Assembly: GCA_028276405.1 (NCBI GenBank)
Contig: JAPYWJ010000011.1
Coordinates: 1-36,065, forward strand
Direction: 5' to 3'
Length of the DNA: 36,065 bases
Source of the DNA: Hydrogenobacter sp.
Lineage (GTDB): Bacteria > Aquificota > Aquificia > Aquificales > Aquificaceae
Part shown: positions 2,638 to 35,161 of the stretch, piece by piece
Layout of the letters: each line of letters starts with the position of its first letter
Position numbering within the stretch: the stretch's first letter is position 1
The notes under the pieces: generated by a model
Databases searched by the model: none
Seen by the model: the letters and a program-made list of their open reading frames with translations, nothing else
Told to the model about the DNA's origin: nothing
Translations under genes and position numbers: made by a program

Positions 2638-2998
2638 TGTCCATCTCCACATACGCACCCATGGGAAGGCTGTTTACACCTACCGTGGTCCTTGCCGGTT
2701 TAACCTCAACATCTTTGAAAAACTCCTCATACAAAGCGTTCAGGAGTGAAAAAAGGGAGAGGTCTGTTATGTAAATGCTCACCTTTGCGATACTATGCCT
2801 GTCTGTACCTGCAGCTTTTAATACAGCGTCTATGTTGGCAAAAACCTGCCTTACCTGTTCTTCAAAAGTACTTTTAAGCTTGCCCGTTTTTGGGTCTATG
2901 CCTATCTGTCCCGATACAAACAGTAAATTACCGTGTATTACAGCCTGTGAGTAAGGACCTGCGGGTTGTGGTGCTTCCTGTGTGTGTATCTTTTTCAT
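2606..2998 (-). CDS. ridA: RidA family enamine/imine deaminase
   Basis: RidA proteins hydrolyse reactive 2-aminoacrylate and related enamines/imines produced by PLP enzymes, in the cytosol. The 130-aa length and the family signatures are present: 'PQPAGPYSQAV', 'LFVSGQIGIDP.TG' and the C-terminal 'PARTTVGVNSLPMGAYVEMDIIA', which includes the conserved Arg of the active-site cleft. The ATG overlaps the yebC stop as ATGA, so the two genes are translationally coupled. The stop lies 32 bp inside the 3' end of lysS on the other strand. Confidence 0.95.
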   Translation of the reverse strand: MKKIHTQEAPQPAGPYSQAVIHGNLLFVSGQIGIDPKTGKLKSTFEEQVRQVFANIDAVLKAAGTDRHSIAKVSIYITDLSLFSLLNALYEEFFKDVEVKPARTTVGVNSLPMGAYVEMDIIAVLGQGKG

Positions 2999-3744
2999 GC
3001 AGACTCTTTTAGAACTTCCTCTGGTATGTCAAAGTTAGATATAACCATTTGCACATCATCAAGGTCATCTAAGGCATCGAGCAATTTTATGAGCCTTTTG
3101 GCTGTTTCTGGGTCTGTTATCTGAACGGTGCTTAAGGGTTTGTAGTTTATGCTTGCGTTTTCTACATGTATGCCCCATTTGGACAAACTATCTTTGACTG
3201 TGTATAACATCTCAGGCTTTGTGTAAACTATGTAATAAGTGTCTCCCGTCTGAATGTCTTCGGCTCCTGCTTCTATAGCTTTTTCGTAAAGCTCATCCTC
3301 AGAGACACTTTCTTTGGGAATTTCCATGTACCCTACCCTTTCAAACATGTAGGATACACATCCTGAGGAACCTAAGTTCCCTCCGTATTTAGAAAAGGTG
3401 TGTCTTATCTCTGCAGTAGTCCTATTTCTGTTGTCAGTAGCAGCAAGCACCATTATGGCTACTCCTCCCGGACCGTATCCCTCGTAAAGGACCTCTTCGT
3501 AAGTTTCACCTCCGAGTTCTCCCGCACCCTTTTTTATAGCTCTATCTATTGTTTCCATAGGCATATTAACTTTCCTTGCGTTTTCTATAGCTGTTCTGAG
3601 CCTTGGATTAGATTCTGGGTTTGAACCTGCTTCTCTAACCGCAACAGTTATCTCTCTAATTAGTTTGCTAAAAAGCCTACCCCTTTGTGCATCAACCTTA
3701 GCCTTCTTATGCTTTATTTGAGCCCAATGACTGTGCCCTGCCAT
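2995..3744 (-). CDS. yebC: YebC/PmpR family protein
   Basis: This family covers DNA-binding regulators and a translation factor (TACO1-like) that relieves ribosome stalling; which role applies here cannot be told from sequence. The 249-aa product begins with the invariant 'MAGHSHWAQIKHKKAKVDAQRG' type start and carries the family core 'PRLRTAIENARKVNMP' and 'YEGYGPGGVAIMV'. An upstream in-frame ATG at 3774 would add ten untypical residues. I chose 3744 because homologues start there and because TATAAT at 3754-3759 lies 9 nt before it, which would make the mRNA leaderless and exclude the upstream codon. It leads the yebC-ridA operon. Confidence 0.95.
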   Translation of the reverse strand: MAGHSHWAQIKHKKAKVDAQRGRLFSKLIREITVAVREAGSNPESNPRLRTAIENARKVNMPMETIDRAIKKGAGELGGETYEEVLYEGYGPGGVAIMVLAATDNRNRTTAEIRHTFSKYGGNLGSSGCVSYMFERVGYMEIPKESVSEDELYEKAIEAGAEDIQTGDTYYIVYTKPEMLYTVKDSLSKWGIHVENASINYKPLSTVQITDPETAKRLIKLLDALDDLDDVQMVISNFDIPEEVLKESA

Positions 3745-3753
3745 AGTGTTTAT

Positions 3754-3759
3754 ATTATA
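3754..3759 (-). promoter_or_regulatory. yebC -10 element
   Basis: A TATAAT hexamer read on the minus strand lies 9 nt upstream of the chosen yebC ATG. No Shine-Dalgarno is visible in that gap. It supports the shorter start of yebC. Confidence 0.6.
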
Positions 3760-3805
3760 TCCCATTGTACACATAAGGTGAGAAATTCAGAAAAGCTCCT
3801 TGTAA

Positions 3806-3835
3806 ATTGCCTATAGCTTTTTATGAGAGGTAATT
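3806..3835. repeat. 30-bp direct repeat, left copy, bounding the R-M cassette
   Basis: This 30-bp sequence recurs without mismatch at 6102-6131 in the same orientation. It begins ATTGCCTATAGC and ends GAGAGGTAATT. The left copy encodes the last four residues and stop of the putative endonuclease on the minus strand. The two copies enclose the whole methyltransferase-endonuclease cassette. The bases next to the two copies differ (A versus T before, C versus T after), so the repeat is exactly 30 bp. It looks like a long target duplication or attachment-site duplication. Confidence 0.9.
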
Positions 3836-4960
3836 CTTACCCAATGCAGTTTTAAGCATATTATATGTTTTTTCTATGTCTTCTACATTTTGATATATCT
3901 TATTGATGGGTTTTAGATTTTTGCTCCATTGTGGATAATAATAAATTATATCCTGAATTATATCCTCTAAAAGATTGATTGAGAATAAAGCATATCTGGT
4001 TTCTTCAAGAGGACTGACAGTATATTCAGATGTGTAAGAGCCATCATTTTTATAAAATGATTTTATCAGTTTAGTTAATTCTTCAATTTTTGGTATCAGT
4101 TGTTTTGCTTCGTTCTTTTGTAATTCAATTTTAGAATATAAGAAATCTATACAATAGAGAATTTTGTAAATTTTTTCAAGAGATAGTTCATTGTTGATAT
4201 ACGTTAATATGTATATAAGCCACAGATTAGCATTTTCGGGAACCTTATTAATATTATCTAAAATAAAGCAAACTTTAAAAAAGCTATCCAAATCTTTTGG
4301 AATGATTTTAACTATTTCCTCTTTATCAATAACAGATTGAAGAAGCTTTGAAAGACTCTCCTTATTAATTTCAATAAGCTGATGTTGAAAATCTAAGATA
4401 TATTTTTTCATATCTACTTTTGCCAAAATATCTTTTAATCTATCGTCAGGTTTTATTATATTTTCAATATGCTCCTTTGGAACCCTGTATGCCATACTTC
4501 GCCAAGCAGGAACCATGTCAAGTTTACCATTATTAACTACCCATTCAGGGTCAAATATAGCATACATCAGTTTCGGTTTATGAACAAACAAAAAAAGCTT
4601 GTTCTTTATAGGCAGGCCATTCTTAATTACTTTAGATTTTTTAAAATCGCAAAATTTTAAGTCTTCTCTTTCTGTGTATTGAAGTTCAATTTCTAATTTT
4701 TCTTTACCTCCATCTATTTCTGCAGTAAAATCGGCATCCCCTGTGACTCCACCTTTTCTTAAAAACCACAGAAATTTGTCTCCTCCTGATTTATAGACTT
4801 TAACTTCCTTTCTAGGATAAAGTTCTTTGAGTTTATTTTCAAGCCATTCTAAAACTTCTAATTCAACAATCGCTTTTCGCTTCATATCTTTCCTATACTC
4901 TAAGTATGTTCGTGATCTTATATCGCTTGATTGGGCATAAGTTGTTTTCGGATCCCTCAT
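3821..4960 (-). CDS. Putative type II restriction endonuclease partner of the adjacent methyltransferase
   Basis: I do not recognise the family of this 379-aa protein. Its start overlaps the methyltransferase stop as ATGA, the arrangement expected of a restriction partner. The N-terminal third contains a possible PD-(D/E)xK-type core: the D75/D77 region 'GVTGDADFTAEI', followed after a short turn by a beta strand 'EKLEIELQY' (E90, E92, Q94). The canonical ExK lysine is not evident. The remaining two thirds are predicted mostly helical with low similarity to anything I know. The coding sequence is visibly AT-richer than flanking genes, and its last five codons, including the stop, lie inside the 30-bp repeat, both signs of acquisition. 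Function is inferred from context. Confidence 0.6.
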   Translation of the reverse strand: MRDPKTTYAQSSDIRSRTYLEYRKDMKRKAIVELEVLEWLENKLKELYPRKEVKVYKSGGDKFLWFLRKGGVTGDADFTAEIDGGKEKLEIELQYTEREDLKFCDFKKSKVIKNGLPIKNKLFLFVHKPKLMYAIFDPEWVVNNGKLDMVPAWRSMAYRVPKEHIENIIKPDDRLKDILAKVDMKKYILDFQHQLIEINKESLSKLLQSVIDKEEIVKIIPKDLDSFFKVCFILDNINKVPENANLWLIYILTYINNELSLEKIYKILYCIDFLYSKIELQKNEAKQLIPKIEELTKLIKSFYKNDGSYTSEYTVSPLEETRYALFSINLLEDIIQDIIYYYPQWSKNLKPINKIYQNVEDIEKTYNMLKTALGKNYLS

Positions 4961-6012
4961 GATTGAGAATACTTCGCCTGATGCGTTTTTAATTTTTTAA
5001 CTGCGATAAAAGCAATCTCTGGGTTTATTTCATAACCTATTGCATTCCTTTGTAAGTCTGCTGCCGCCAGAAGCGTAGTTCCAGAGCCTACGAATGGATC
5101 AAGAACAGTTTCCCCAATATAACTGAATGCTTTAATTAATCTATAAGGAAGCTCATACGGAAAAGGTGCTACATGATCCCTCTTATCTCCACTACCCTGT
5201 GGTTTCATCACCCAAACATCGCTGTTTTTAATAGACAACCAAAATTCTTTATCCAGTTTAGAATTCTCCTTCTGTTCCGTGGTTAGATGTGCATATTTCC
5301 TAAACCCTTTTTTTGCAGGTTTTTCGAACTCCAGAATATACTCGTGCATGTTGTTTATCAATATTCCACCTGGGTAAGGGTAAGTCCCGAAATGTGCTTT
5401 TACCCCATTAGTTTTATGCCATATTATATCTCTTTTAAATATAAAGCCTATTTTTTCAAATATATCTATCGTTCTGCCAACTAAATTAAGGCTTTTAAAA
5501 CTACCATCTTCTAATCTTATAGGCAGGTTCATTATATTTATAAATGCCTTACGACCAGGTTGCAAAACTCTATAGATCTCTTTCCACACTTCGCTTATTT
5601 TTTCAAACCATTCATCTATGTTGTGAATGTTTCCAAGATCACCTTCTATTGGTTCGGCTGAATACATCTTAGCATTGAAGTATGGCGGAGAAGTTATTAC
5701 TAGATGTATGCTTTCATCCGTAAGTTCGTCCATTTTCATTGAGCTTTTAACAATCACTTTTTGAATTGTTCCATTGACTTCAACGGTGTTTATTGCGTCG
5801 ATATTAATTTGCTTATTCTTATGTGAAACTGGGAACTTATCTTTTATCTCTTTCAACTTTTTTAGATCAAACCTCCTTTGACCACTTGGAGCAACCTGGA
5901 CTGGAATGATACCCTTTTTTGTTAGTTTATGAAGTGTTTTAACATCTATCCCTAAATATTTTGCGGCCTCAACGGCAGACAAGTAGGTTCTTTCTTCGTA
6001 ATACTTAGCCAT
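4957..6012 (-). CDS. Site-specific DNA methyltransferase (beta class, SPPY type) with N-terminal MerR-like HTH
   Basis: The 351-aa protein has the amino-MTase catalytic motif IV 'TSPPYFNAKMY' at residues 107-117. It is followed by the AdoMet-binding motif I 'DPFVGSGTTLL' at 305-315, an order that defines the beta class. SPPY favours N4-cytosine modification, but N6-adenine cannot be excluded. Residues about 8-60 form a MerR/excisionase-like winged helix ('LSAVEAAKYLGIDVKTLHKL', then 'SGQRRFD'), unusual for this class and possibly autoregulatory. TATAAT at 6021-6026 lies 8 nt before the ATG. The gene heads the cassette and is translationally coupled to the putative endonuclease. AT-rich composition and the flanking 30-bp repeats suggest transfer. 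Confidence 0.9.
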   Translation of the reverse strand: MAKYYEERTYLSAVEAAKYLGIDVKTLHKLTKKGIIPVQVAPSGQRRFDLKKLKEIKDKFPVSHKNKQINIDAINTVEVNGTIQKVIVKSSMKMDELTDESIHLVITSPPYFNAKMYSAEPIEGDLGNIHNIDEWFEKISEVWKEIYRVLQPGRKAFINIMNLPIRLEDGSFKSLNLVGRTIDIFEKIGFIFKRDIIWHKTNGVKAHFGTYPYPGGILINNMHEYILEFEKPAKKGFRKYAHLTTEQKENSKLDKEFWLSIKNSDVWVMKPQGSGDKRDHVAPFPYELPYRLIKAFSYIGETVLDPFVGSGTTLLAAADLQRNAIGYEINPEIAFIAVKKLKTHQAKYSQS

Positions 6013-6020
6013 AATATTGT

Positions 6021-6026
6021 ATTATA
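6021..6026 (-). promoter_or_regulatory. -10 element of the methyltransferase gene
   Basis: TATAAT on the minus strand ends 8 nt before the methyltransferase ATG, with no Shine-Dalgarno between. The transcript of the cassette is predicted to be leaderless. Confidence 0.6.
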
Positions 6027-6101
6027 CCTCAGGTGGGGAACTCAAAAAACCCAAGAATCTCTTGATAAAAAGCCTTGCTTGTCTACCTTTATGCTTATGC
6101 T

Positions 6102-6131
6102 ATTGCCTATAGCTTTTTATGAGAGGTAATT
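6102..6131. repeat. 30-bp direct repeat, right copy, bounding the R-M cassette
   Basis: This perfect copy of 3806-3835 ends exactly one base before the metK -10 hexamer (6132-6137). Collapsing the two repeats to one would join yebC and metK as a divergent pair about 105 bp apart. The duplication would therefore have kept the sequence upstream of the metK -10 unchanged when the cassette entered. Confidence 0.9.
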
Positions 6132-6137
6132 TATAAT
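6132..6137 (+). promoter_or_regulatory. metK -10 element
   Basis: TATAAT lies 8 nt before the metK ATG without a Shine-Dalgarno. It directly abuts the right copy of the 30-bp repeat, so any -35 element lies inside the repeat. Confidence 0.65.
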
Positions 6138-6145
6138 GTTTACAC

Positions 6146-7282
6146 ATGGGAAGACACATAAAGATGGCTGAATCACCAACAGAAGGGCACCCGGACAAGC
6201 TTGCGGACCTAATTGCGGACGCTCTCCTTGACGAATTTCTCAAAAAAGACCCATACAGCAGAGTGTCTTTAGAGATCCTTCTTATCTCTGGTATGACCTT
6301 TGTATCGGGGCATGTATCCACGGAAAGCTATGTGGACATTCCGGGTGTTGTGAGAAGCACTATAAAAGAAGTTGGATATAACAAACCTGAGTACGGCTTT
6401 GATGCAGATACATCTGCGGTGATAACTTCCATAGAAGAACAAAGTCCCGAGATAGTACTTGGTATATCCTCAGAAGGGGCAGGGGATACAGCTACGGTTA
6501 TAGGATACGCTTGTACAGAAACACCCAATTACATGCCTCTTCCCATAAGCTTGGCTCATGCTCTCTCTAAAAAGATATCTGATATGAGAAAGGCAGGAAA
6601 AGCACCCTTTCTCAGACCAGACGGTAAAGTTTTGCTCACCGTCGTGTATGAAGATGATAAGCCTCTGTTTTTAAAGAACCTTGTGGTGTTTGTCCAACAT
6701 GACCCAGATGTATCCTTAGAAAACCTCAGAGAATTTGTGCACGAAGAAGCCATTAAAAAAGTAGTACCACAGACATTGCTACAGGAAAACACGAAGATCA
6801 TGATCAATCCTTCAGGAAGGTTTGTGCTGGGAGGTCCTGCTGCTGATGCCGGTCAGACGGGTAGAAAGATAGTGTCTGATGCCTACGGAGATGTGGCGTA
6901 TTCTGGGGGAAGTGCTTTTTCAGGAAAGGATCCTACAAAAACAGACAGGTCCGCTTCTTACCTTGCAAGAATGATGGCAAAGCATGTAGTTGCCTGTGGT
7001 TTTGCAAAAAGGTGTATGATCCAGATGGCTTACGCTTTTGGAGTAAGTGAGGTCTTAGCTTTTGACTTAGAAACTTTTGGCACAGAAAAGGTAGACAAGG
7101 AAAAGATCAAGTCCGCACTGCTTGATGTGTTTCCAACAGGACCTAAAAGGATCATAGACTTCCTTGATCTGCGAAGACCCATATACAAAAAGACCGCTTG
7201 CTACGGACACTTTGGTAAAGAAGACCTATCCTGGGAGAAGCTTACAAAGGTAGAAGACCTCAAATCAAGGTTATCTTTATAA
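6146..7282 (+). CDS. metK: S-adenosylmethionine synthase
   Basis: MetK makes S-adenosylmethionine from methionine and ATP in the cytosol. The 378-aa length is normal. Signatures seen are the N-terminal 'ESPTEGHPDKLADLIADALLD', the hexapeptide-like 'GAGDTATVIGYA' (bacterial GAGDQG site, here slightly divergent) and the phosphate-binding loop 'GGPAADAGQTGRKI' followed by 'GGSAFSGKDPTKTDRSASY'. It is the first gene of an apparent operon with a DsrE-like protein, rpoZ and a lytic transglycosylase. AdoMet would also be the donor for the neighbouring methyltransferase, but this adjacency results from insertion rather than from an operon. Confidence 0.96.
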   Translation: MGRHIKMAESPTEGHPDKLADLIADALLDEFLKKDPYSRVSLEILLISGMTFVSGHVSTESYVDIPGVVRSTIKEVGYNKPEYGFDADTSAVITSIEEQSPEIVLGISSEGAGDTATVIGYACTETPNYMPLPISLAHALSKKISDMRKAGKAPFLRPDGKVLLTVVYEDDKPLFLKNLVVFVQHDPDVSLENLREFVHEEAIKKVVPQTLLQENTKIMINPSGRFVLGGPAADAGQTGRKIVSDAYGDVAYSGGSAFSGKDPTKTDRSASYLARMMAKHVVACGFAKRCMIQMAYAFGVSEVLAFDLETFGTEKVDKEKIKSALLDVFPTGPKRIIDFLDLRRPIYKKTACYGHFGKEDLSWEKLTKVEDLKSRLSL

Positions 7283-7284
7283 TA

Positions 7285-7794
7285 ATGATGGTGTGGCATT
7301 TCCTGTTTTTTCTGCTTATGGTGGGATGCTCTTTGGCTACCGAAGGTGGTAAGTTCATACAAACTCAGTATTCAAAGCCTTTTAAAGCGGTTGTAGAGTT
7401 TTACTTTGATCACCCCCAGAAGGTAGGACCTGCCCTAGGTTGGGTTTCTAACCTTGTGTATGTACTTACTAATCCACCCTACAATTATTCTCAGGAAGAT
7501 ATAGACATTGTAGTTATATCTCACGGTAGGGAGCTTCCTGTATTTGCCAAAGAAAACAGGAAAGATTACGAGAGCATAGTAGAAAGAATGGAAAGCCTCA
7601 GTATGTATGGAGTAAGGTTCATGGTTTGTTCTATGGCAGCTAAACAGTTTTACGGGTATTCGGAAAAGGACTTCTATCCCTTTGTAAGCTTAGTACCTTC
7701 TGCTCTTACTGAAATAGTTCATTGGCAACACATGGGTTATGGACTTTTAATACCGCAGGTTATAGAAATTAAACAAGGAGGTGTTTCACCATGA
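7285..7794 (+). CDS. DsrE/DsrF-like family protein with N-terminal signal sequence
   Basis: The 169-aa protein begins with a hydrophobic stretch ('WHFLFFLLMVGC'), either a signal peptide or a lipoprotein signal (Cys preceded by MVG, an imperfect lipobox). The rest resembles single-domain DsrE-like proteins: 'DIDIVVISHGRELPVFAK' and a later 'VRFMVCSMAAKQF' with one conserved-position Cys. Family members in sulfur metabolism bind or carry sulfur on such a Cys, but exported versions have no firm function. It starts 2 bp after metK (start chosen at the first ATG; a second ATG follows immediately), and its stop overlaps rpoZ as ATGA. The specific role is unknown. Confidence 0.75.
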   Translation: MMVWHFLFFLLMVGCSLATEGGKFIQTQYSKPFKAVVEFYFDHPQKVGPALGWVSNLVYVLTNPPYNYSQEDIDIVVISHGRELPVFAKENRKDYESIVERMESLSMYGVRFMVCSMAAKQFYGYSEKDFYPFVSLVPSALTEIVHWQHMGYGLLIPQVIEIKQGGVSP

Positions 7795-32425: not shown

Positions 32426-32867
32426 AAAGGTTTATAAAGGTTGCAAGATACCCCTTGACCTTTACTACGATATAGAGAATCAGGTTTGGTATAAGTTGGA
32501 ACCAGACGGTACAGTCAGGGTGGGTGCAACAGACATAGGTCAGACCAGAGCAGGTAAAATGGTAAATGTAAGGATAAAAGCGGTAGGAAAGTATGTTCAG
32601 AAAGGTAAACCCATTGCCAGTCTTGAAAGTGGTAAATGGACAGGACCAGTTCCTGCCATAATAGAAGGAGAGATAGTAGAAAGGAACGATCTTCTTTTTG
32701 ATACGCCGGAGCTCATCAACGAAGACCCTTACGGTAGGGGGTGGATAGCCCGCCTAAAACCTGCTCACTTAGAAAAAGATCTTAGAGACCTTTTGACTGG
32801 TGAAGAGGCTTTTAACAAACTAAAGGAGTACATGGACAGAGAAGGTGTAGAGTGTAAAGGCTCATGA
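32418..32867 (+). CDS. Lipoyl-carrier protein of the GcvH/LbpA type
   Basis: The 149-aa protein has the GcvH-like barrel-sandwich fold ('WYKLEPDGTVRVGATDIGQTRAGKMVNV'-type region). The probable lipoyl-lysine is K73 in 'SLESGKWTGPVPAIIEGEI'. Canonical GcvH has ESVKA at this site; 'ESGKW.GP.PA' is, from memory, the pattern of LbpA, the lipoate-binding protein of the sulfur-oxidising heterodisulfide-reductase-like pathway. Neither glycine-cleavage nor sHdr genes are next to it. ATG 32418 overlaps the previous stop. A longer frame starts at 32322 in the aldolase gene and was rejected. Confidence 0.85.
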   Translation: MTEKVYKGCKIPLDLYYDIENQVWYKLEPDGTVRVGATDIGQTRAGKMVNVRIKAVGKYVQKGKPIASLESGKWTGPVPAIIEGEIVERNDLLFDTPELINEDPYGRGWIARLKPAHLEKDLRDLLTGEEAFNKLKEYMDREGVECKGS

Positions 32868-33638
32868 CAGGCCATTCCTTGTAAGAAGCTCTTCTATATA
32901 TTTATGCAAACTGTCCAAAGGAACTGTATCTATCTTTTCGCCCTTTAAAAACACATCCACCGCTAACTTTACCTCTCCGTTTACCTTCATTTTAGTACCT
33001 ACAAAACCTATGTCTCCCGCACCGTGCTGTCCGCAACCCTTGGCGCAACCAGACCAGTGCATTCTTATGGGTTCCTCTCTTGGTAATCTCTCCGAGAGGT
33101 AGTTGGCAAGCTTTATGGCGTCAGGTTTGTTTTCTATGACCCCAAAGGCACACGTCCTGCTTCCCTGACAAGCCATAAGCCCTTCAAAATAAGGGCTGTT
33201 TGAGATCCCATATCTTTCAAACAATTCATCATCAAGAAGCCCGTTAAGGTTCTCCTCCGGCACATTAAAGGTTTTGGTATGTAGAAAGCCTGACCTCACC
33301 GCTTCCATACCTTTTGGCAAGTTCTGCCACTCTTTCAAGGTCAGTCCCAGTAAAAATGCCCGCTGGAACCACAAGGCTCACCGCATACAGTCCGTTCTTT
33401 TGCTTTATTATTCCGCATCTCTCACCAACCTTCTGGACAAGCTCCTCTCCCCTTCTCCATAAGTTTTTCATGAGCCTCTGCTCAAGTTCCTTTCTAAAAC
33501 CGTCAACGCCCAACTCTTTTATCAAAAAATACAGGCGGTTTTTATTCCTATCTTCCCTGTTTCCCATATCCGAATACAGTTCAAAAATCCCTTTGGCTAT
33601 GTCTAAGGCTTCGTGCGGTCTTACAAAGATGTCCAAGA
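32862..33638 (-). pseudogene. nirA: Ferredoxin-type nitrite reductase, 5'-truncated and frameshifted
   Basis: The remaining part covers roughly the C-terminal half of a siroheme nitrite reductase. From the junction it reads 'VLDIFVRPHEALDIAKGIF', then 'GIFTGTDLERVAELAKRYGSGEVRLSTYQNL' in pieces, then meets an in-frame TAA (33265-33267). The other frame immediately continues 'NVPEENLNGLLDDELFERYG'. Downstream the siroheme/[4Fe-4S] ligands survive as CQGSRTC and CAKGC. The first roughly 250 residues are absent. Both the missing 5' half and the frameshift indicate a dead gene, unless either is an assembly or sequencing error. Its 3' end overlaps the LbpA-like gene by 6 bp. Confidence 0.88.
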
Positions 33639-33640
33639 CG
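33636..33640. other. Head-to-head nirA/nasA junction
   Basis: NirA homology on the minus strand and NasA homology on the plus strand meet here with no intergenic DNA. Both genes lack their 5' parts. The junction could be a deletion between divergent genes, an inversion, or an assembly join. Confidence 0.75.
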
Positions 33641-35161
33641 CATCCTGTTGTTTTTAAAAGATTACTAAAGAGAAAGCATGAGTCTAAGTTAGTTGTCATT
33701 GACCCTATAAAAACAGATACAGCAAAAGAGGCGGATCTTCATATACAGTTGAGAGCTGGTACTGATACCGCGCTTTTCAATGCGGTGCTTTTCCTTTTGC
33801 ACGAGAAAGGATGGGTAAACTGGGATTTTGTAAAAAATTATGTAGATGGTTTTGAAGTGGCTTTTGAAGAATGCAAGAAATACCCACCAAAAGTAGTGTC
33901 TAAAATATGCCAAATAGAAGAAAAGCATATATATGAGCTTGCAGAGCTTTACGCTTTTAGCAGAAAGCTTATATCTCTTTGGTGCCAAGGATTAAATCAA
34001 TCTTCTCAAGGGATAAATAAAAATATAGCCCTTATTAACCTTCACCTTGCTACTGGGAGGTTAAACGAAAGGGGTTGTCCCTTTTCCCTTACCGGACAGC
34101 CCAACGCCATGGGTGGCAGGGAAATGGGTTATATGTCCAACGGTCTTCCCGGTTATAGAGATGTTAGAAATCAAGAGGATAGAGAATTTATGGAGAGGTT
34201 CTGGGGTGTTAGTAGGGGTAGCATAAAAGCTACACCTGGACCTACCATAACAGAGGCCATAGATCTTATTCTTGCAGAAAAAATAAAGCTCCTTTGGGTG
34301 GTTTGCACTAACCCCGCTATAACTCTACCAAATTTAGACAAGGTATGGAAAGCCCTTGAGAAGGTTTTTCTCGTCGTGCAAGATGCCTACTGGAACGATA
34401 CTTGTAGCTTTGCCAATTTGATATTACCAGCAGCTCAAATGGGTGAAAAAAAAGGAATTATGACAGCCTCCGACAGAACCATAACCTTTAACAACAGCTT
34501 TGCAAAGCCCCCTGGAGGAGCAAAAGCGGATTGGCTTATCTTTACAGAACTTGCAAACCACTTAGGCTATGGAAAACACTTCTCCTACAAGAGTGAAGAG
34601 GAGATATTTGATGAACTCAAACAGTGCACAAAAGGGAGATTATGCGATATTTCTTCCTTTACCTACAGAGATCTTCCAAAAAGATGGGGCAAAAGATGGC
34701 TTTATGAAGAACTAGAATTTCCTACACAGAGCGGTAAAGCGAGAATGTTTGCTACACCTTACGATTATCAAGAAGCGGACCTTATCCTAATCACTGGTAG
34801 AACAAAGAACCAGTGGCATACCATGACAAGAACTGGTAAAAGCGAAGAACTTCTAAAAGGTGAGGAAGAACCTTTCCTCTTCATAAATAAAGAAGACGCT
34901 CATGAGTTTGGCTTAGTTGAAGGGGATATGGTTGAAATCTTCTCAAAGGATACCAGCTTAAGAATGAAGGTAAAATTTGGGGAAGTAAAAAGAAAGCACC
35001 TTTTTGCAGCTTTTGGTTATGGATTCTCACATCAAGCGGTAATAAACACCTTGACTAATGACCTTACAGATCCTATATCAAAACAGCCAGAACTTAAGTT
35101 TACAAATGTAAAACTTAAGACAGTTAATAGGAGGAAGGAGGATAAGCCTACATGGTGTTGA
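33638..35161 (+). pseudogene. nasA: Assimilatory nitrate reductase catalytic subunit, 5'-truncated
   Basis: About 508 residues of a molybdopterin oxidoreductase remain. Homology begins at 'THPVVFKRLLKRKHESKLVV', which continues 'DPIKTDTAKEADLHIQLRAGTD', then 'RLNERGCPFSLTGQPNAMGGREMGY' in part, 'PAAQMGEKKGIMTASDRTI', and a C-terminal dinucleotide-binding domain ('LILITGRTKNQWHTMTRTGK'). The N-terminal [4Fe-4S] cysteines and about 190 residues are missing. Upstream codons in this frame (33314-33637) are the antisense of nirA, not NasA. An ATG at 33629 exists, but the product would lack the cluster. The stop overlaps hemD by 10 bp. Confidence 0.88.

What the first reader, a model, noticed from the sequence alone, without database searches (positions are those of the whole stretch)
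3806..6131. R-M cassette inserted between yebC and metK with a perfect 30-bp direct repeat
The sequence shows an exact 30-bp repeat at 3806-3835 and 6102-6131 enclosing only a methyltransferase and a putative endonuclease, both AT-richer than neighbours. No integrase or transposase is present. Insertion with long target duplication has been described for restriction-modification gene complexes (Kobayashi laboratory). The right repeat ends one base before the metK -10, so the host promoter region was kept, and the left copy supplies the last codons of the endonuclease. Collapsing the repeats gives a plausible ancestral divergent yebC-metK pair about 105 bp apart.
Basis: partly seen in the sequence, partly recalled or inferred. 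Interest (0 to 1): 0.8.

Follow-up and report, generated by a model that had tools for sequence, protein, structure and literature searches.

The report
Restriction-modification cassette bracketed by 30-bp duplication
A heat-loving Aquificaceae bacterium has acquired a two-gene DNA-modifying and putative DNA-cutting cassette, and a perfect 30-base copy of sequence on each side fits an insertion that duplicated the spot where it landed, a way of moving already described for such gene pairs.

Summary
A perfect 30-bp direct repeat (3806-3835, 6102-6131) brackets only a methyltransferase gene and a putative endonuclease gene. It has two copies in the genome, and the 48% surveyed holds nothing like it outside CRISPR arrays and intragenic repeats. 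The genes are foreign: the endonuclease is absent from the other 135 genomes of the phylum searched, is AT-rich, and belongs to a conserved M-R pair found in 24 loci across many bacterial phyla and Archaeoglobus. Where endonuclease homologues end, the window protein carries a six-residue tail whose last four codons and stop come from the left repeat, so the repeat looks like target sequence. Best reading: insertion with target duplication into a 107-bp divergent yebC-metK spacer, as reported for other R-M systems. Two limits apply. No relative shows the empty site, because yebC and metK are not neighbours in any congener. And other members of this R-M family do not show such duplications; one sits between iscS and iscU with none. 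So the duplication belongs to this insertion, not to the family. The endonuclease family matches no Pfam, NCBIfam, PADLOC or PDB entry.

The parts
3806..3835 (.). left copy of the perfect 30-bp direct repeat (host target, also last four codons plus stop of R)
6102..6131 (.). right copy of the 30-bp direct repeat, directly before the metK TATAAT
3821..4960 (-). putative restriction endonuclease, 379 aa; invariant D77, E92-x-Q94; C-terminal GKNYLS beyond the family's usual end
4957..6012 (-). beta-class DNA methyltransferase (TSPPY, DPFVGSGT) with N-terminal HTH_17/MerR-like domain, 351 aa
6013..6101 (-). 89-bp leader of the M gene between its start and the right repeat; holds a -10-like TATAAT (GGTATAATAC on the - strand) and the inverted repeat CAAGA-GAT-TCTTG (operator function not tested)
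   Evidence: read from sequence
6132..6137 (+). metK -10 element TATAAT; TATAAT at this place is kept in all four congeners while the sequence upstream is not
3743..3805 (-). yebC promoter region (TATAAT at about 3752-3757); the stretch joining the left repeat, GGCAATTT, is shared with congener G001
2995..3742 (-). yebC (from the MAGHSHWAQ start)
6146..7282 (+). metK, S-adenosylmethionine synthetase

Best explanation
A horizontally acquired two-gene Type II-like R-M cassette (about 2.27 kb, 3836-6101) was inserted into a short divergent yebC-metK spacer, and 30 bp of that spacer were duplicated. The duplication leaves each host gene with its own copy of the shared sequence, so metK keeps its promoter up to about -42 and yebC keeps all of its promoter. 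Shown: the repeat, its uniqueness, the foreignness of the genes, the conserved M-R pair, the absence of a recombinase gene, and the R gene running out into the repeat. Inferred: that the spacer was single-copy before, and the route. The route I think most likely is repair of a broken chromosome, in which the broken end copied incoming cassette DNA and then returned to the chromosome 30 bp upstream of where it left, which needs no transposase. In the cell the pair most likely works as an ordinary R-M system: M protects sites by base methylation (TSPPY suggests N4-cytosine) and R cuts unmodified DNA.
For: Perfect repeat, two copies in the genome. R absent from 135 other genomes of the phylum. 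All 24 homologous loci from many phyla and Archaeoglobus carry M directly before R, and M and R identities correlate (r = 0.83). Apart from two near-identical Shapirobacteria-type loci, immediate flanks are unrelated. Homology stops at the ORF ends; the window R protein is six residues longer than its nearest relative, and NYLS* of that tail lies in the repeat; its last four residues have pLDDT below 50. Low G+C. The repeat's yebC-side end continues into GGCAATTT, shared with the yebC promoter region of congener G001 (alignment score 51, shuffles at most 46), and its metK-side end runs into the kept TATAAT, so both ends look native. An independent member of the same family sits between iscS and iscU, which are adjacent in at least 9 of 12 readable relatives, so the cassette does insert into housekeeping loci without a recombinase gene. 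R-M insertion with long, variable target duplication is described (PMC3874152, PMC3031569, PMC1643837).
Against: No empty site: yebC and metK are not adjacent in any congener, and the 30-mer is absent from 40 relatives. Among 20 relatives of the cassette with readable flanks, only one (L096) has a long direct repeat near the ends, and that one appears to belong to a dispersed intergenic family, so long duplication is not a habit of this family. 30 bp is short for the described mode. The route is inferred only.
Confidence: 0.68

Rival explanations
1. Site-specific integration: the 30 bp is an attachment core (attL/attR) made by a tyrosine or Xer recombinase acting in trans or since lost.
For: A repeat of 30 bp is the usual size of att or dif cores (own knowledge); no recombinase would be needed inside the cassette if one acts in trans.
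Against: No inverted arms beyond chance (p = 0.51); no third copy (for example a chromosomal dif) in the genome and none in 40 relatives; a dif-like pattern search does not hit the repeat; no tRNA nearby; other cassettes of the family share no flanking sequence.
Confidence: 0.12
2. Single crossover (homologous or illegitimate) of a circular molecule that already carried the 30 bp, for example a circle excised earlier from the same site in a sister cell.
For: Gives the same final structure; a circle with one copy is what recombination between the repeats would release.
Against: No plasmid, phage or viral contig with R or with the 30-mer core was found; it still needs an earlier duplication or a chance 30-bp match.
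Confidence: 0.1
3. Assembly error: the copies are real but the joins are not, or the contig shows a circle-plus-empty-site mixture as an insertion.
For: 30 bp equals the overlap of a k = 31 graph; the same contig shows another odd junction near 33.6 kb; yebC-metK adjacency is unique to this genome among the congeners.
Against: Most assemblers pass a 30-bp repeat with normal reads; each copy has a continuous, sensible context (R stop codon, metK promoter); the R reading frame runs intact across the left junction.
Confidence: 0.06
4. The repeat is a functional element (operator or promoter part) kept or copied for regulation of yebC, metK or the cassette.
For: The right copy lies at about -13 to -42 of metK; the left copy lies upstream of yebC.
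Against: Not kept in any congener upstream of either gene; no palindrome; full 30-bp identity includes R codons.
Confidence: 0.04

Closest known systems
Insertion with long target duplication of R-M genes (Nobusato et al. 2000; Furuta et al. 2010; as cited in PMC3031569, PMC3874152, PMC1643837)
   Same: R-M gene pair bracketed by a direct repeat of target sequence, no transposase, inserted between host genes, in a lineage with scrambled gene order
   Different: 30 bp instead of the order of 100 bp; empty allele not seen; thermophilic Aquificaceae instead of Helicobacter pylori
Beta-class TSPPY DNA methyltransferases (nearest solved structure 2zie, named there 'Putative modification methylase')
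   Same: N6_N4_Mtase family, motif order TSPPY then DPFxGSGT
   Different: Carries an N-terminal HTH_17/MerR-like domain
PD-(D/E)XK restriction endonucleases
   Same: Model has a helix, then strands, with invariant D77 and E92-x-Q94 on neighbouring strands
   Different: No family, PDB-sequence or fold match; Q in place of K; assignment is inference
att- or dif-bracketed integrative modules
   Same: Short direct repeats around a module without its own recombinase
   Different: No arms, no third site, no shared site in relatives

Membership tests
Type II R-M system | DNA methyltransferase with catalytic motifs | tested here: met
   PF01555 E = 7.1e-46, PADLOC MTase_II 2.3e-62, TSPPY and DPFVGSGT
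Type II R-M system | cognate endonuclease recognised by family or fold | tested here: inconclusive
   no Pfam, NCBIfam, PADLOC, PDB-sequence or fold match; partnership with M in 24 of 24 loci
Type II R-M system | sequence-specific cutting blocked by methylation | not testable with these tools
   needs enzyme assay or methylome
Insertion with long target duplication (R-M) | R-M genes bracketed by long direct repeat, no recombinase gene | tested here: met
Insertion with long target duplication (R-M) | empty allele with one copy of the target in a relative | tested here: inconclusive
   no congener has yebC and metK adjacent and no relative searched holds the 30-mer
Insertion with long target duplication (R-M) | duplication length long and variable, of the order of 100 bp (as given in PMC3874152) | tested here: inconclusive
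   30 bp here: longer than transposon target duplications, shorter than 100 bp; the literature calls the lengths variable (PMC3031569), and the primary papers could not be read
Recombinase att/dif module | inverted recombinase-binding arms in the repeat | tested here: not met
   p = 0.51
Recombinase att/dif module | further copies of the site in the genome or relatives | tested here: not met
PD-(D/E)XK nuclease | conserved D...E-x-K/Q on core strands with flanking helices | tested here: inconclusive
   D77, E92, Q94 invariant in 18 sequences; AF2 model pLDDT 85.5 places them on or beside strands, but no fold match at E <= 0.001

The most novel reading that the evidence does not exclude
The two-gene cassette is itself a transposase-free mobile element: its own endonuclease, perhaps guided by the excisionase-like HTH of the methyltransferase, makes the staggered break or drives the repair that inserts it and duplicates the target.
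Probability: 0.06. Interest if true: 0.8.

Novelty: new member of a known kind. Interest (0 to 1): 0.4.

Why it matters
It extends R-M insertion with target duplication to a thermophilic Aquificaceae lineage and offers a clean, probably young case, since the repeat is still perfect. It also brings out an R-M family without a described endonuclease relative that moved as a bare M-R pair across bacteria and into an archaeon, and that can sit between tightly linked housekeeping genes such as iscS and iscU. The duplication gives a simple reason why insertion next to the presumably essential metK was tolerated: the upstream part of the metK promoter was copied.

Tried and rejected
Dispersed repeat: rejected, two copies only. 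dif/Xer site: dif-like pattern search gave many weak hits, none at the repeat. Palindromic core: not above chance. tRNA or RNA target: none near. Family-wide habit of long duplication: rejected, 1 of 20 others and that one in an apparently dispersed repeat. Short repeats at L105 (24 bp, three copies) and L113 (17 bp) were set aside as dispersed or too short. Phage or plasmid carriage: no hits for R; viral hits for M are about 40% identical general methyltransferases. Fold search of R: no significant match. The iscU start was not found automatically in many of the loci; the count of 9 of 12 was made by eye on those printed. Furuta et al. 2010 is not held in the library, so the range of duplication lengths rests on reviews.

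Full report
Observation. The window is contig C9 of a 1.36-Mb genome; its four congeners include a 1,743,135-bp single contig, the length I recall for Hydrogenobacter thermophilus TK-6 (own knowledge), so the genus is probably Hydrogenobacter. ATTGCCTATAGCTTTTTATGAGAGGTAATT stands at 3806-3835 and 6102-6131 without a mismatch. It is the only repeat of 22 bp or more in the window, has no other copy in the genome at up to 3 mismatches, and is not expected by chance. A census of 649 kb of the genome for direct repeats of 20 bp or more within 12 kb found CRISPR arrays, intragenic tandem repeats, a few short repeats (at most 24 bp), and this one.

What lies between. Two genes on the minus strand overlap by 4 bp. 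The first is a beta-class DNA methyltransferase (PF01555, E = 7.1e-46; TSPPY then DPFVGSGT; nearest solved structure 2zie) with an N-terminal HTH_17/MerR-like domain. By the usual rule for motif IV (established knowledge), TSPPY points to N4-cytosine. The second is a 379-aa protein with no Pfam, NCBIfam, PADLOC or PDB relative above cut-off. An AlphaFold2 model on 18 homologues is confident (pLDDT 85.5) and shows an alpha/beta N-terminal part with invariant D77 and E92-x-Q94 on or beside core strands and an all-helical C-terminal part. No solved fold matches it. Calling it a PD-(D/E)XK-like nuclease is inference; calling it the partner of M is well supported.

Foreign origin. R is absent from all 135 other genomes of the phylum searched, four congeners included. 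In a collection of 84,980 species genomes it has 24 detected relatives, in hosts as far apart as Caldimicrobium, Zixibacteria, Elusimicrobia, Nitrospirae, Aminicenantes, Bdellovibrionales, Patescibacteria and Archaeoglobus (labels of metagenome-assembled genomes for most), and every one has M directly upstream. M and R identities rise and fall together (r = 0.83). The nearest is the Caldimicrobium locus (76% M, 68% R). Neighbours are unrelated except for two near-identical loci (L106, L111); by eye none of the immediate neighbours is an integrase, and L112 has a transposase-like ORF upstream. The cassette is the most AT-rich 2.3 kb of the window.

Where the cassette ends. In the relatives, recognisable homology stops at the M start and at about R residue 373. 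In the window R runs on for GKNYLS, of which NYLS and the stop are encoded by the left repeat. The last four residues are disordered in the model. This is what is expected if the R gene lost its own end on insertion and took its stop from target DNA. A few relatives have tails of similar length (L095, L097, L098, L102, L104), so the end of R varies at each insertion. No terminal inverted repeat pairs the two cassette ends.

The host side. Collapsing the repeats gives a 107-bp divergent spacer. On the yebC side the repeat runs on into GGCAATTT, which the congener G001 shares upstream of its yebC; on the metK side it runs into the TATAAT that congeners keep. Both ends therefore look native. But gene order in this genus is scrambled: upstream of metK stand trmFO-, prfB- and serS-like genes (named by eye) in different congeners, and yebC lies elsewhere; the 30-mer is absent from 40 relatives. 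The empty site was therefore not seen. If the cassette had come in together with the rearrangement that made yebC and metK neighbours, a perfect direct repeat at its borders would be unexplained, so the adjacency most likely came first.

Does the family always do this? No. Of 20 relatives with readable flanks only L096 has a long direct repeat nearby (81 bp with mismatches, 191 bp and 274 bp from the genes), and related copies in the same intergenic region suggest a dispersed repeat. L104 is informative: the pair sits between iscS and iscU, which are adjacent in at least 9 of 12 readable relatives, with no long repeat. The cassette thus enters housekeeping loci more than once, with and without visible duplication. 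Older duplications may have decayed.

Mechanism. The structure fits insertion with target duplication, reported for R-M systems with long and variable duplications (PMC3031569), of the order of 100 bp (PMC3874152), first in H. pylori (PMC1643837). A broken end that copies incoming DNA and rejoins the chromosome upstream of its starting point gives such a duplication of any length without a transposase; this route is inferred. The duplication also explains survival: metK keeps its own sequence up to about -42 and yebC keeps all of its spacer. Recombination between the repeats would restore the spacer exactly.

Rivals. An attachment core is disfavoured by lack of arms, of other copies and of shared sites. 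A circle carrying the 30 bp cannot be excluded without relatives.

Verdict. Observation confirmed; interpretation plausible and best, not proven. It is a new case of a known kind, in a new host group, with an R-M family of unrecognised endonuclease type as the more useful by-product.

Noticed in passing
window 32862-35161, junction near 33630: A nitrate-reductase-like gene (+) lacks its N-terminal part (510 aa against a 688-aa frame in G004) and abuts head-to-head a broken nitrite/sulfite reductase gene (-) split over two frames. Deletion with decay, or a misjoin 2.4 kb from the contig end.
   Followed up: partly
L104:4895-7161: The same R-M pair lies between iscS and iscU of a Thermodesulfovibrionales genome, genes that are adjacent in relatives: an independent insertion with a nearly exact empty site.
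   Followed up: partly
L102:4960-7140: Same pair between an rpe-like gene and a transketolase-like gene in an Azambacteria genome, perhaps splitting a linked pair.
   Followed up: no
L106 and L111, downstream of R: Two Shapirobacteria-type loci share a downstream gene (92% identical) and an Xre-like upstream remnant, perhaps a longer version of the cassette.
   Followed up: no
L096:4660-4740 and 7285-7471: Intergenic repeat family (GGGGAATTTG-rich) around the cassette in an Elusimicrobia genome.
   Followed up: partly
L154:794 and 7548; L137:3058 and 3933 (own genome): Short repeats sharing TTTTTAGAACA / TGTTCTAAAAA, several copies, perhaps ends of an insertion element.
   Followed up: no
window 6057-6069 (approximate): Inverted repeat CAAGA-(3)-TCTTG in the M leader, a candidate operator for the methyltransferase's own HTH domain.
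   Followed up: no
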